Shown piece by piece: positions 11,452-15,953 of a stretch of DNA of 64,000 nt; positions within the stretch are counted from its first letter, which is position 1; each line of letters starts with the position of its first letter. The notes under the pieces are model-generated. The model worked only from the letters and a program-made list of their open reading frames with translations, made no database searches and was not told the origin of the DNA. The DNA is from a virus, in the IMG/VR virus record IMGVR_UViG_3300021961_000073, positions 1 through 64,000 of that record; one strand, 5' to 3'. Position numbers and translations under genes: made by a program.

Positions 11452-12345
11452 ATGTCTTTTGCAAATCTAAAACGTAACCGCGGACAAATCGAAAAGCTCG
11501 TATCTGCTGCCGAAGGAATCTCAGGCAGCACTAGCAACAACTCCTACAAAGATGATCGGATGTGGAAGCCTACCCAAGATAAAATGGGTAATGGATACGC
11601 TGTTGTTCGATTCTTGCCTGCAGGTGAAGGTCAAGATCTTCCATGGGTACGCTACTGGGATCACGGGTTTAAAGGCCCAACTGGTAAGTGGTACATCGAA
11701 CGTTCCCTGACCTCAATTGGTAAAGAGGATCCGGTCGGTGAGATGAACTCTCGCCTATGGAATACAGGTAATGATGTAGACAAAGAACAAGCACGTGATC
11801 AAAAACGTCGTCTACATTATGTGTCGAACGTGCTGGTTATTTCGGATCCAGCTAATCCTGACAACGAAGGTCGTGTCTTCATGTATCAGTACGGTAAGAA
11901 GATCTTCGATAAGATCATGGATATGATGCAACCTCAGTTCCAGGACGAAGCACCAGTTAATCCATTTGATTTCTGGGAAGGTGCTAACTTTAAGATCAAG
12001 ATCCGCAAAGTCGACGGTTGGGTAAACTACGACAAATCAGAGTTTGATTCACAGAGTGAGTTATACGATGGTGATGATGCAAAGCTTGAATCAGTATACA
12101 ATGCTATGCATGATCTTGGTGAGTTTACTGATGCTAAGAACTATAAGCCATACGCTGAACTGAAAGCGAAGTTGGATTCGGTACTTGGTACTGCTCCTTC
12201 TATTCGTGAAGAGATCTCATTGGGTGAAGAAGCACCAGCTCCTCAACTTCGTGAGATGCCAGCTCAGAGTATCGAAGAAGCCTCGAATGATGATGAGGAT
12301 GAAGACGATACGATGAAGTATTTCGCTCAGTTAGCTAATAGTTAA
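11452..12345 (+). CDS. 32: gp32 single-stranded DNA-binding protein, 297 aa
   Basis: Homologue of T4 gp32 (301 residues). The basic N-terminal B domain (FANLKRNRGQIEKL) mediates cooperative binding, the core follows (YAVVRFLPAGEG, LPWVRYWDHGF) and the acidic tail (SNDDEDEDD, ending KYFAQLANS) binds partners. In place of the T4 zinc-ribbon cysteines the segment reads ERSLTSIGKEDPVGE with no cysteine, the form usual in marine T4-like phages. It coats and protects single-stranded DNA in replication and recombination. The ATG follows AAGGAAACATACA. It converges on the tape measure gene, overlapping it by 4 bases. Confidence 0.95.
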   Translation: MSFANLKRNRGQIEKLVSAAEGISGSTSNNSYKDDRMWKPTQDKMGNGYAVVRFLPAGEGQDLPWVRYWDHGFKGPTGKWYIERSLTSIGKEDPVGEMNSRLWNTGNDVDKEQARDQKRRLHYVSNVLVISDPANPDNEGRVFMYQYGKKIFDKIMDMMQPQFQDEAPVNPFDFWEGANFKIKIRKVDGWVNYDKSEFDSQSELYDGDDAKLESVYNAMHDLGEFTDAKNYKPYAELKAKLDSVLGTAPSIREEISLGEEAPAPQLREMPAQSIEEASNDDEDEDDTMKYFAQLANS

Positions 12346-14243
12346 AGATAAGATAGCCCAGGAGTCCCAAGACCATATTGATCTATGGTACTGGGACTCC
12401 CTTGGGATACATTTATACTTTGATTCGTTGTATTACCAGAAATTTTTCTATTATCAACAGAAACTGGAGCGATATTAACACTTCCAGCGGCTCTTCTTGC
12501 ATTTTGTTGTTCAGTTAGCAATTCACCCATGTCTATATTATTTAAGCCTTGTTGTCTTAATAAGTAGGATCTATTAACAGCACCTTGTATATCCTCTCCC
12601 TTATTAACACCAACGGTTTCCCCTAAATCGAACCCGTTAGGACTAATAGACGTTTTCTTTTCAGGTGTACGAAGCGCCGGTCTAGGTTTCTTAAGAAATT
12701 CTTCGATAATAGCTTTATTTTTTGGATCATTTAACATCTTTGAAAAAGCTGCTTGATTATCCATTAAAAGCCTTCTATCAACTTGTCCTACTAAATTTTG
12801 TATCTCAAGCTGTTTGCTAAGAATATCGTCCACGGTTTTTAAATCTGGATATTTTGCCATTACAGCATCAATATAATCTTGGATTTTAAGTGATTGAAAT
12901 GCTTTAACTGCCCGTGGACCTATATCTTGAGGCGTACCTGTTTTACGTAAAAGTTCTGTTAATTGATCAATCTTAGCTTGAACACTGTCTAGATCTTTAG
13001 GATTCATTTTACCAGAATCTCTGTACTCTTTTAATGCTTGAACTGCATTATCAACTTGAATTCTCTCGCGGTCAGTTAGTTTATTTGGATCCCCACCCGA
13101 TTTAAATAATATATCTTCTGCTATTTCAAGCGCTTTAGCTCTATTTTCAATCTCACTTTTCCTCAAATAATCTAAAACTATATTACCTAGTCCTATCATC
13201 ATTCCTGCAATGGCGCCAACGATTAATCCCTTTGGCCCGAACATGCTTCCAATTGCCATACCACCAGTGGTCCATTGAGCCCATTCAGATACATTATCTT
13301 TAGTTGCTTGATCGCCTCCTACAGCTTCACCGAGATAAGCACCTACGGCTGTACCCATAGCAAGTAATGCTGCAGCATTTAAAAATCTACTACCAAATCC
13401 CGTCAGGAAACTGTCTCGAAGAGGTTTCTTTAGCTTTTTAAATCGACCTTTCTCATCTCTTCCTACCTTAGCATCTTTAAAAGCTAATTCTTGACCACCC
13501 AATCCTTTAGTCAGAGCACCATAGATTAAAGCTGGACCGAAGAAGGCTGCTACAGTTGTACCTAATGTAATTAAGTCTTCGTTGGTAATATCATACTTAA
13601 TATCATCAGTGAGATTAATTGTGCCTAGTTTTTTCTCTAATGACTCTTTAGACAAAGTAGAACTAATGGCTTTGGATATTAAATCTCCTAGGAAGACCGC
13701 AATACCAAATTTCTTACCAAATATACTTGCTACAATACCTTTTACTAAAGCCCCATTGATATCCGAAGCTAGACCCTTCATCTCAGTATCATTTAGATTA
13801 AAGATATCATCGACACTTAAACCTTTTAACGCTGATTCGATAATCTGTTCACCGAAAAGACCTACGATTCCTGCTAATGCACCACGACCTAGAGCTTTGC
13901 CCATCCCTCTCGCGAGCGCTCTCGAAAGGGCCGCTCCACCGATGCCTAATCCAAGCCCAGCAAGCAGTTTATTAACATCTTCTAATCCTGTGCCTTCAAA
14001 AAGGCCTTTTTTAAGTGATGAACCGATACTACCTTTACCTTCACCTCCGTATCTCATTATTTGAGATTTAAGGCTTTGGTTCTGCTTTCTTTTGGCCTCT
14101 AGATCATCGAGCTTTTCTTGTTTTTTAGATCTGGCATCTCTTAACAATTGGGCCTTTACAGCAGCAAAATTCTGCGTCTGAGCTTTTAGCTGAGAGTTAG
14201 TATCTTGTAGTTCTTTGACTACGTCTTCTAATGTTACTGCCAT
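12342..14243 (-). CDS. 29: tail tape measure protein (gp29-like), 633 aa
   Basis: Long protein with an N-terminal coiled coil (residues 5-60, Gln/Lys-rich), then repeated Gly/Ala-rich hydrophobic helices (LLAGLGLGIGGAAL, VGAIAGMMIGLG and others) and a mostly helical charged C-terminal half. This is the composition of tape measure proteins, which set tail length and exit ahead of DNA. At about 0.15 nm per residue, 633 residues give about 95 nm, close to a T4-like tail (T4 gp29 has 590). It directly follows gp26 and its frameshift extension, the canonical position after tail chaperones. The last codons coincide with a strong hairpin. Confidence 0.8.
   Translation of the reverse strand: MAVTLEDVVKELQDTNSQLKAQTQNFAAVKAQLLRDARSKKQEKLDDLEAKRKQNQSLKSQIMRYGGEGKGSIGSSLKKGLFEGTGLEDVNKLLAGLGLGIGGAALSRALARGMGKALGRGALAGIVGLFGEQIIESALKGLSVDDIFNLNDTEMKGLASDINGALVKGIVASIFGKKFGIAVFLGDLISKAISSTLSKESLEKKLGTINLTDDIKYDITNEDLITLGTTVAAFFGPALIYGALTKGLGGQELAFKDAKVGRDEKGRFKKLKKPLRDSFLTGFGSRFLNAAALLAMGTAVGAYLGEAVGGDQATKDNVSEWAQWTTGGMAIGSMFGPKGLIVGAIAGMMIGLGNIVLDYLRKSEIENRAKALEIAEDILFKSGGDPNKLTDRERIQVDNAVQALKEYRDSGKMNPKDLDSVQAKIDQLTELLRKTGTPQDIGPRAVKAFQSLKIQDYIDAVMAKYPDLKTVDDILSKQLEIQNLVGQVDRRLLMDNQAAFSKMLNDPKNKAIIEEFLKKPRPALRTPEKKTSISPNGFDLGETVGVNKGEDIQGAVNRSYLLRQQGLNNIDMGELLTEQQNARRAAGSVNIAPVSVDNRKISGNTTNQSINVSQGSPSTIDQYGLGTPGLSYL
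12361..12400. terminator. hairpin at the gp32 / tape measure convergence
   Basis: GGAGTCCCA (12361-12369) pairs with TGGGACTCC (12392-12400), and an inner ACCATA/TATGGT stem extends it after two mismatches. It lies 16 bases beyond gp32 on the plus strand and inside the last codons of the tape measure gene on the minus strand. It probably ends or stabilises the gp32 mRNA; no U run follows. Confidence 0.6.
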
Positions 14244-14254
14244 AAGAATAGCCC

Positions 14255-15141
14255 TTATTGATTTCGTTCTTGTGCTTCTCTTTGTTCTTTTAACTGATTA
14301 AGTAACATATCCAAATAAACTTCCCTCTCCCAGGGAATCATGCCATCTATGTCTTGTAGCGAATAATGAAAGTTTTGAATCAATTGGTAGTTCACCTTAT
14401 AGAAGTTAACTAAGCTGTCGTGGGAGAGGGTAATTGAAAAAAATCTTGTAACCCCTCCAACACAAAGTTTTGTTCTTTACTGCACGCTTCACAATTAAAA
14501 TGAACCTCGTGACTAAGCCTTGGCAGTTTCTGTGTAAATGCCACGATCTTGTCAAATTGGCTTGTAGTCAATTCATTTAAAAACGTCTCTACGCTTTCTC
14601 GTGTCTCGTCCTTGAAAGAGATCCTTTCCTCTTCAGTCTCTAAATGATCTAAGCATTCATATATCAATCCGTATAAAGCATCGACTTCGGATTGATCGGT
14701 GTTCTTTGCTTCCTCAAGTAGTGCATTATATCTGGGATATCTAAGTTTCAGATTCACTGTATCAGTGAGCTGGACTGAAGGCACTTTCTCGGGGAGATCA
14801 ATTTTAACATCTTCTAGTGGTATACTAATCTCTGTGTACTCTTGACACTCATTGCAGGGCATACGAATTATAGACGTTTCACCTGCTGACTTCATTCGGA
14901 TACGAATAAACATATATTCGATATCGAAGGTTGCTAAAGTGTTTACATCGATAGGTTCTTGTACACATGCTGCAATTGAATCCATAATTGCTCTTAGGAT
15001 ATGATCAATCTCGCCAGTTTCCAAAGCAATCAATAGAACTTTTTGTTCTTTTACTAGGAAAGGTCTATAGGATACTTTCTGTCCAGTAGACGGGATAGTC
15101 ATATAATAAATGGGTACATCATTAATCTTGGGTAAAGCCAT
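14255..15141 (-). CDS. gp26 -1 frameshift product (tail assembly chaperone fusion), 295 aa
   Basis: A shift of -1 at the seven-T run near the end of the gp26 frame reads straight into a second open frame. It gives 235 shared residues and then 60 new ones, beginning SITLSHDSLVNFYKVNYQ and containing MIPWEREVYLDMLLNQLKEQ before a stop at 14255-14257. There is no stop between the slip site and that end. A stand-alone start for the extension (GTG at 14395) has a poor ribosome site. The gene just downstream is the tape measure. This is the arrangement of lambda G/GT tail chaperones. The frames and heptamer are seen; the shift itself is inferred. Confidence 0.7.
14410..15141 (-). CDS. 26: gp26-like baseplate hub / tail chaperone protein, 243 aa
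   Basis: Member of the T4_baseplate family (T4 gp26 and gp51). The N-terminus ALPKINDVPIYYMTIPSTG and RPFLVKEQKVLLIALE is characteristic, followed by FDIEYMFIRIRMKSAGE. Two CxxC pairs (CNEC at about 157 and CEAC near 220) could bind a metal. The frame ends in EGLQDFFQLPSPTTA, and the FF codons are the slip site for the fusion product. T4 gp26 has 208 residues. The gene lies between gp54 and the tape measure, and the product probably acts as assembly chaperone of the tape measure in the hub. Confidence 0.8.
   Translation of the reverse strand: MALPKINDVPIYYMTIPSTGQKVSYRPFLVKEQKVLLIALETGEIDHILRAIMDSIAACVQEPIDVNTLATFDIEYMFIRIRMKSAGETSIIRMPCNECQEYTEISIPLEDVKIDLPEKVPSVQLTDTVNLKLRYPRYNALLEEAKNTDQSEVDALYGLIYECLDHLETEEERISFKDETRESVETFLNELTTSQFDKIVAFTQKLPRLSHEVHFNCEACSKEQNFVLEGLQDFFQLPSPTTA
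14437..14443 (-). promoter_or_regulatory. -1 frameshift slippery heptamer T TTT TTT
   Basis: On the minus strand the zero-frame codons are GAT TTT TTT CAA, so the seven T form a perfect X XXY YYZ slippery heptamer. Re-reading one T puts the ribosome into the frame of the conserved-looking 60-residue extension. The gp26 stop lies eight codons further on. Confidence 0.75.
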
Positions 15142-15155
15142 CTCAAATCATTCCT

Positions 15156-15953
15156 TTATTCACCAATATTATTGCCAAAAATGTTTGTAATCTGATTACC
15201 ACTAACTCCGCCGATCGATACTCCACCTGGATTATCTAAGACCTTAGCAGCAATCTTACCAGGTGCACCAAATTTACTAAGTACACCACTTAACGGTCCA
15301 CCGCCAGCACCTACACCACCGGATGTCCAATACTTATATGACAATTGAACATTTAATCTTAAGATGTCATCAGGAGCATCATTACCAAGTTCAACGAGGG
15401 TCATAGTAGTAGGAAATGCTTGTACTAGAGTACACGAATAAACTACTTTGTCTGCTGTTGCAAAACTTAAATCTAGCTCACCTTGTGCAAAATCGAAGGG
15501 ACCGATTTTAGGTAGATTATTTTGTATATCTGCAGGTAATCTAGGTATACCTAATGGGGTCTTATAAATTGGTAATCCTACGCCTTTTGCCATTTGTTGT
15601 ATCTGAACATCCTTAGCATAGCTATTCAGATATCCGACCTCACCACGTTCTTGGTTAACACAAAGGCTTTGCCATACGTCAAAGTATTGCCTAACGCCAT
15701 AGTCGTTTAACAGTAAAAAGGTGAGGTTCACATCATCGTATAAATTGTCTGTAGCAACCTTTTGTTTGATAATTCCATGTCTTCTTTCCTGGGTCATTAT
15801 TTGCCGACCAGGAATATTTACGTTTGTGCAAAGGAGGTTTATCTCTGAAGACGTAGCACCAGGCATCGAAGGTAATCTAACACTAAATACGTTGCCTCTA
15901 GCTATACCGTCTTTCTGAGAAATTATGGACTTTAACTGTTCAATGCTAGCCAT
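15156..15953 (-). CDS. 54: gp54-like baseplate tail-tube initiator, 265 aa
   Basis: Begins like tube-fold proteins, with GNVFSVRLPSMPGA and ICTNVNIPGRQIMT-type strands, and has YFDVWQSLC and YLNSYAKDVQI, which match the gp19/gp54/gp48 tube domain. Opposite gp48 and shorter than it, this is most likely gp54, which sits on gp48 and starts tube polymerisation. T4 gp54 has 320 residues. The Gly-rich C-terminus (SGGVGAGGGPLSG and on) is unusual and may be flexible. It overlaps the upstream gene by one base and is followed 14 bases later by gp26. Confidence 0.75.
   Translation of the reverse strand: MASIEQLKSIISQKDGIARGNVFSVRLPSMPGATSSEINLLCTNVNIPGRQIMTQERRHGIIKQKVATDNLYDDVNLTFLLLNDYGVRQYFDVWQSLCVNQERGEVGYLNSYAKDVQIQQMAKGVGLPIYKTPLGIPRLPADIQNNLPKIGPFDFAQGELDLSFATADKVVYSCTLVQAFPTTMTLVELGNDAPDDILRLNVQLSYKYWTSGGVGAGGGPLSGVLSKFGAPGKIAAKVLDNPGGVSIGGVSGNQITNIFGNNIGE

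What the first reader, a model, noticed from the sequence alone, without database searches (positions are those of the whole stretch)
14255..15141. Programmed -1 frameshift in gp26 makes a tail chaperone fusion upstream of the tape measure
The last codons of the gp26 frame include GAT TTT TTT CAA, a perfect X XXY YYZ slippery heptamer (14443 to 14437 on the minus strand). A -1 shift there leads without a stop into a 60-residue extension containing MIPWEREVYLDMLLNQ, which ends 11 bases before the tape measure ATG. The extension has no convincing start of its own. Many long-tailed phages make a G/GT-type chaperone pair by a -1 shift at this place, but T4 itself is not usually listed among them. 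If real, gp26 of this lineage is the missing G/GT equivalent.
Basis: partly seen in the sequence, partly recalled or inferred. Interest (0 to 1): 0.8.

Follow-up and report, generated by a model that had tools for sequence, protein, structure and literature searches.

The report
Ribosome-slip tail chaperone pair (gp26/gp51)
This marine T4-like phage very probably makes two versions of one tail-building helper protein by letting some ribosomes slip back one base; the slip site and the extra tail are kept across its relatives, and this kind of arrangement has already been described for T4-like phages.

Summary
A T TTT TTT heptamer lies in frame at 14443-14437 (-) near the end of a 243-residue gp26 gene (PF12322, E 1e-55). 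The -1 frame runs 60 codons without a stop and ends 11 bases before the next ATG. The extension is gp51, the "baseplate hub assembly catalyst" (PHROG 634, E 5e-21). Among 56 distinct related loci, 52 keep T TTT TTN and all 56 keep an uninterrupted extension. In a second batch, 76 of 76 do both. Homology starts directly after the heptamer, no start codon is conserved there, and dN/dS is about 0.06. One phage has no possible start codon in the whole extension. The N-terminal domain resembles the HK97 tail assembly chaperone (Z 7.5, suggestive). T4-type phages instead carry two paralogous genes: gp26 (short form) and gp51 (long, fused form); all 8 examined lack the heptamer. So this is a G/GT-type tail assembly chaperone pair made by -1 frameshifting. 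It is not the missing case: Vladimirov et al. 2022 identified these genes in T4-like phages (title and later citations seen, paper not read). What this adds: most marine "gp51" entries are mis-started fragments, and gp51 is present, unannotated, in an Aeh1-type phage.

The parts
14410..15141 (-). gp26, zero-frame product (243 aa): short form, TAC-N / lambda G-like
   Evidence: ORF; PF12322 T4_baseplate E 1.1e-55; PHROG 150 E 1e-58; model pLDDT 86, residues 1-86 match HK97 tail assembly chaperone 2OB9 Z 7.5
14437..14443 (-). slippery heptamer T TTT TTT in the gp26 frame
   Evidence: sequence; conserved as T TTT TTN in 52 of 56 and 76 of 76 distinct relatives
14255..14437 (-). -1 frame extension (60 codons plus stop) = gp51; read after the slip it gives a 295-aa gp26-gp51 fusion, TAC-NC / lambda GT-like
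   Evidence: PHROG 634 E 5e-21 and PHROG 150 C-terminus 235-281 of 282; dN/dS median 0.064
14413..14437 (-). stretch read in both frames: zero-frame tail QLPSPTTA and -1 frame SITLSHDS
   Evidence: also in L004 and, diverged, in Pelagibacter phage Mosig (L067)
14452..14458 (-). GGAGGGG, anti-Shine-Dalgarno complement 8 nt upstream of the heptamer; candidate stimulator
   Evidence: -9.8 kcal/mol, matched by 17% of synonymous versions: inconclusive
12342..14243 (-). 633-aa downstream protein, presumed tape measure
   Evidence: position and size only; no PHROGs hit; relatives with complete ORFs have 463-853-aa proteins there
15156..15953 (-). upstream tail-tube-like protein (265 aa)
   Evidence: PHROG 45 tail tube E 9e-34

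Best explanation
gp26 and its -1 extension are one gene with two products. Most ribosomes read through the T TTT TTT run in frame and stop eight codons later, giving the short 243-residue protein. A minority slip back one base with tRNA-Phe re-pairing in the P and A sites (TTT TTT to TTT TTT) and go on for 60 codons, giving a 295-residue fusion with a gp51 tail. By analogy with lambda G and GT (recalled), the abundant short form coats the tape measure protein, and the rarer long form recruits tail tube subunits through its extension. Shown here by sequence: the site, the frame, their joint conservation, purifying selection, homology to T4 gp26 and gp51. Inferred: that translation really slips here, at what rate, and the chaperone role.
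For: Heptamer T TTT TTN in 52 of 56 distinct loci of the first set and 76 of 76 of the second; after reduction to under 90% identity in the extension, 29 of 33 of the first set. Extension uninterrupted in 56 of 56 and 76 of 76. Protein homology to the extension starts at residue 1 or 2, directly after the slip site, in nearly all loci where it was found (exception L056). No start codon upstream of the heptamer within the open -1 frame in 56 of 56 and 71 of 76. Desulfovibrio phage 7757 (L072) has no ATG, GTG or TTG anywhere in the extension, and Aeromonas phage AS-szw (L073) has its first at codon 31. dN/dS of the extension: median 0.064, maximum 0.19 over 65 of 128 pairs examined, overlap codons left out; window against its nearest relative 0.032. 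The fused protein exists as one continuous gene in T4-type phages: gp51 aligns to gp26 over 1-207 (E 2e-16) and to the extension over 199-257 (E 8e-12); T4-type gp26 aligns to the short form (E 3e-30); and 8 of 8 T4-type gp26 genes lack a slippery heptamer in their last 60 nt. The N-terminal fold resembles HK97 tail assembly chaperone 2OB9 (Z 7.5, 85 residues, 4.4 A; rows 3 and 4 have Z 4.4 and 3.1; Foldseek probability 0.82).
Against: No measurement of translation was available. No stable structure downstream of the site (z 0.43). The Shine-Dalgarno-like element is strong in the window but weak or absent in many relatives; the group mean is only slightly below synonymous controls (-5.08 against -4.30). 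Four of 56 first-set loci lack the heptamer although the extension is still in the -1 frame (L051, L070, L071, L074). The Z of 7.5 to HK97 TAC is in the range the tool warns may be a common arrangement, and Foldseek's E-value for it is 0.83.
Confidence: 0.93

Rival explanations
1. gp51 is a separate small gene started inside the extension, by re-initiation after the gp26 stop or from an internal ATG, as most records annotate it.
For: Of 12 annotated heptamer-bearing records fetched, 8 annotate a separate CDS of 30-63 aa and none a joined CDS. In the window, codons 41 and 43 have good ribosome-site-like purine runs. In ValKK3 the annotated gp51 starts at an ATG that overlaps the gp26 stop.
Against: The first residues of the extension are conserved although start codons there are not; L072 has none at all. 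Starts at codons 41 and 43 of the window would leave 19 residues or fewer. The heptamer, perfect and in frame, has no role in this model.
Confidence: 0.04
2. The frame switch is made by RNA polymerase slipping on the T run, not by the ribosome.
For: The window has seven T in a row, and the protein products would be the same.
Against: Where the seventh base varies it is C, A or G: 24+5+1 of 76, leaving runs of six T, short for transcriptional slippage (recalled); what is conserved is the tRNA-Phe re-pairing heptamer.
Confidence: 0.025
3. A homopolymer error in the assembly splits what is really one continuous gene, or the -1 opening is chance.
For: Metagenome contig; a T7 run is a typical place for indel errors, and long -1 openings are common (17 of 68 ORFs).
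Against: The same arrangement occurs in over a hundred distinct sequences including isolates, with TTTTTTC as well as TTTTTTT, and the zero-frame stop usually follows within 7-16 nt.
Confidence: 0.005

Closest known systems
[quoted passage not shown] not held, seen as title and through citing papers)
   Same: By its title and the citing papers, the same gene pair: they report poly-T slip sites in TAC-N genes of T4-like phages, and T4-like phages with a short and a long (fused) gene instead.
   Different: This is an uncultured marine lineage. I could not read which genes and lineages that paper covers.
Lambda G/GT and HK97 tail assembly chaperones (biology recalled; HK97 structure 2OB9)
   Same: Two products from one gene by a -1 slip near the 3' end, just upstream of the presumed tape measure; N-terminal fold similar (Z 7.5).
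   Different: Sequence kinship not tested; the heptamer is poly-T, not G GGA AAG (recalled); gp26 is longer, with a second domain and two CXXC pairs.
T4 genes 26 and 51
   Same: Homologous throughout: gp26 = short form, gp51 = short form plus extension.
   Different: Two paralogous genes on opposite strands, no heptamer (8 of 8 T4-type phages).
TAC locus of Vandenendeviridae and Andersonviridae (PMC12846349, section 24 read)
   Same: Conserved -1 extension and poly-T site (GTTTTT) upstream of the tape measure.
   Different: Different families, with G where this lineage has T. The L051 group here (TCG TTT TTT TAA) has the same GTTTTT.

Membership tests
[quoted passage not shown]
   T TTT TTT 14443-14437; 52 of 56 and 76 of 76 relatives
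G/GT-type tail assembly chaperone pair made by -1 frameshift | Conserved -1 extension under selection with no start of its own | tested here: met
G/GT-type tail assembly chaperone pair made by -1 frameshift | Located directly upstream of the tape measure gene | tested here: inconclusive
   A 633-aa gene follows by 11 bases, but no family hit names it tape measure
G/GT-type tail assembly chaperone pair made by -1 frameshift | Tail assembly chaperone fold of the short form | tested here: inconclusive
   2OB9 Z 7.5 over 85 residues, rmsd 4.4, rank 2; Foldseek E 0.83, probability 0.82
G/GT-type tail assembly chaperone pair made by -1 frameshift | Both products made, and needed for tail assembly | not testable with these tools
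   needs infected cells or a reporter
T4 gp26 (PF12322 / PHROG 150) | Profile match over the whole protein | tested here: met
   PF12322 189 bits against cut-off 24.5; PHROG 150 E 1e-58; hhalign to T4-type gp26 E 3e-30
T4 gp51 / PHROG 634 | Homology of the extension to gp51 | tested here: met
   PHROG 634 E 5e-21; hhalign to gp51 199-257 E 8e-12
Classical stimulated -1 frameshift signal | Downstream hairpin or pseudoknot, or upstream Shine-Dalgarno-like stimulator | tested here: inconclusive
   No downstream stem in the window (z 0.43; pseudoknots not modelled); upstream GGAGGGG present, weakly supported across the group

The most novel reading that the evidence does not exclude
The frameshifted gp26/gp51 gene is the older form in the whole T4-like group. 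Different lineages then replaced it with other ways to make a short and a long chaperone: a gene duplication in T4-type phages (gp26 and gp51), and possibly stop-start re-initiation in Limestonevirus-like and some Vibrio and Pseudomonas phages, while KVP40-type, Aeh1-type and marine phages kept the slip.
Probability: 0.45. Interest if true: 0.45.

Novelty: new member of a known kind. Interest (0 to 1): 0.3.

Why it matters
Annotation of many marine phage records should be changed to a joined CDS. It also gives a natural set in which the same short/long chaperone ratio is set by slipping or by two genes, so the ratio's importance can be tested.

Tried and rejected
Downstream stimulatory structure: no stem better than shuffles in the window; a hairpin that encloses the slip site (z -1.44) uses the GGAGGGG/CCCTCTCC pairing, not kept in most relatives (seen by eye). 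Shine-Dalgarno-like stimulator: only a slight group effect, and the null ignores relatedness. Openness of the -1 frame alone was rejected as evidence, because 17 of 68 ORFs have 50 or more open -1 codons past their stop. Tape measure identity: PHROGs and Pfam gave nothing useful (the Pfam Saf_2TM hit is under its cut-off). Papers: seven answered full-text searches listed no paper that I recognised as describing the cyanophage gp26/gp51 frameshift; I opened only some of those listed. The 2022 Virology paper is not held. The fold lists name no tail assembly chaperone besides 2OB9.

Rows dropped: T4-type loci L066, L068 and L081 did not match the window's gp26 by tblastn at the limit used and are not in the 56 counts; they were used. 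Loci whose contig ends near the gp26 stop were left out of the first set (L045, L046, L060, L065) and of the second (L087). Identical sequences were counted once.

Full report
What is there. On the minus strand the window has a tail gene run: head closure (PHROG 218), DNA end protector (PHROG 429), a tail-tube-like protein (PHROG 45), gp26 (PF12322, PHROG 150) and a 633-aa protein with no PHROGs hit. The last codons of gp26 are GAG GGG TTA CAA GAT TTT TTT CAA TTA CCC TCT CCC ACG ACA GCT TAG. T TTT TTT is at 14443-14437. In the -1 frame the reading goes on from 14437 for 60 codons to a TAA at 14257-14255, 11 bases before the next ATG.

What the extension is. It matches PHROG 634, baseplate hub assembly catalyst (gp51), at E 5e-21, and also the C-terminal part (235-281 of 282) of PHROG 150, the gp26 family. 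So the profile of the gp26 family itself already contains members in which the two are fused.

Conservation. I collected relatives from IMG/VR by gp26 alone and from annotated phages. In the first set (window included), 56 distinct loci had a readable extension region: 52 carry an in-frame T TTT TTN, 56 have an uninterrupted -1 frame, and 56 have no start codon in the open -1 frame upstream of the heptamer. Reduced to under 90% identity there are 33, of which 29 carry the heptamer. In the second set all 76 distinct extensions follow T TTT TTN (46 T, 24 C, 5 A, 1 G as last base); 5 of 76 have a start codon upstream in the -1 frame. The zero-frame stop usually comes 7-16 nt from the start of the heptamer; in the window, its close relatives and Mosig it is 31 nt. 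FF dipeptides elsewhere in first-batch loci are in this context in 10 of 153 cases.

Selection and starts. dN/dS in the extension, overlap codons excluded, has a median of 0.064 and a maximum of 0.19 over 65 pairs with usable dS (of 128 compared; pairs are not independent), and is 0.032 for the window against L004. Conserved residues begin right after the slip site while start codons there come and go. Desulfovibrio phage 7757 has none in the whole extension and Aeromonas phage AS-szw none before codon 31: in these the extension, or most of it, can hardly be made except by a frameshift.

T4. Gene 26 and gene 51 of T4 belong to the same PHROG. Profile comparison shows gp26 equals the short form (E 3e-30), gp51 equals the short form (E 2e-16 over 1-207) plus the extension (E 8e-12 over 199-257), and gp26 and gp51 are paralogues (E 1e-21) (E-values are for a single comparison). 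T4 gp26 still ends ...GLKEFFELL, at the place of the slip site, but reads GAG TTC TTT; none of 8 T4-type phages has a heptamer in the last 60 nt of gp26. In a tree of 49 proteins the T4-type gp26, T4-type gp51 and single-gene gp26 form three separate groups, which fits one duplication in the T4-type line; the root is not fixed by the data, so the order of events is inference.

Fold. The predicted gp26 structure (pLDDT 86) gives HK97 tail assembly chaperone 2OB9 at Z 7.5 (85 residues, 4.4 A) and 3FGX at Z 7.8 for the first ~90 residues; the third row has Z 4.4 and the next 3.1. Foldseek's E-value is weak (0.83) but its probability for 2OB9, 0.82, is the highest of the 50 rows shown. I take this as support, not proof.

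What is known. Vladimirov et al. [quoted passage not shown] The PRFect paper (two passages seen) cites it for T4-like phages that carry one short and one fused gene instead of frameshifting; the Adele paper (section 24 read) cites it for poly-T slip signals in TAC-N genes of T4-like phages. So the kind is known; this lineage is a new member. Of 12 annotated heptamer-bearing records fetched, none has a joined CDS, 8 have a short separate gp51-like CDS (30-63 aa) and 4 have nothing there.

Limits. No translation data; the slip rate is unknown; stimulators are not established; the tape measure label is by position.

Noticed in passing
L070 3220-3245, L071 3232-3257, L074 3058-3083, L168 2963-2990: Kuttervirus, Limestonevirus, Vibrio phage D493 and Pseudomonas phage Cygsa01 keep the -1 extension but have ATT TTC or CTT TTC in place of the heptamer; in Limestonevirus, D493 and Cygsa01 the gp26 stop overlaps an ATG (TAATG) in the extension frame, so re-initiation may have replaced slipping; Kuttervirus has no such ATG.
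   Followed up: partly
L051-L055, L057 (gp26 3' end): One lineage has TCG TTT TTT TAA, i.e. G TTT TTT in place of T TTT TTT, the same GTTTTT reported for Vandenendeviridae.
   Followed up: partly
L073 3203-3375: Aeromonas phage AS-szw (Ceceduovirus; that Aeh1 belongs to the same genus is recalled) has the heptamer and an unannotated 56-codon gp51 extension; Sullivan 2010 lists gp51 as missing only in Aeh1.
   Followed up: partly
window 14413-15141 (residues 96/99 and 217/220): gp26 has two CXXC pairs far apart in sequence; the model matches a LysW-containing entry over 92-235 at Z 3.1, so a split zinc ribbon is possible.
   Followed up: no
window 12342-14243 and the gene after the extension in relatives: The gene after the extension is highly variable (463-853 aa among complete ones listed) with no PHROGs hit for the window's; in several relatives (L059, L062, L067, L075) the long ORF begins more than 300 nt further on.
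   Followed up: no
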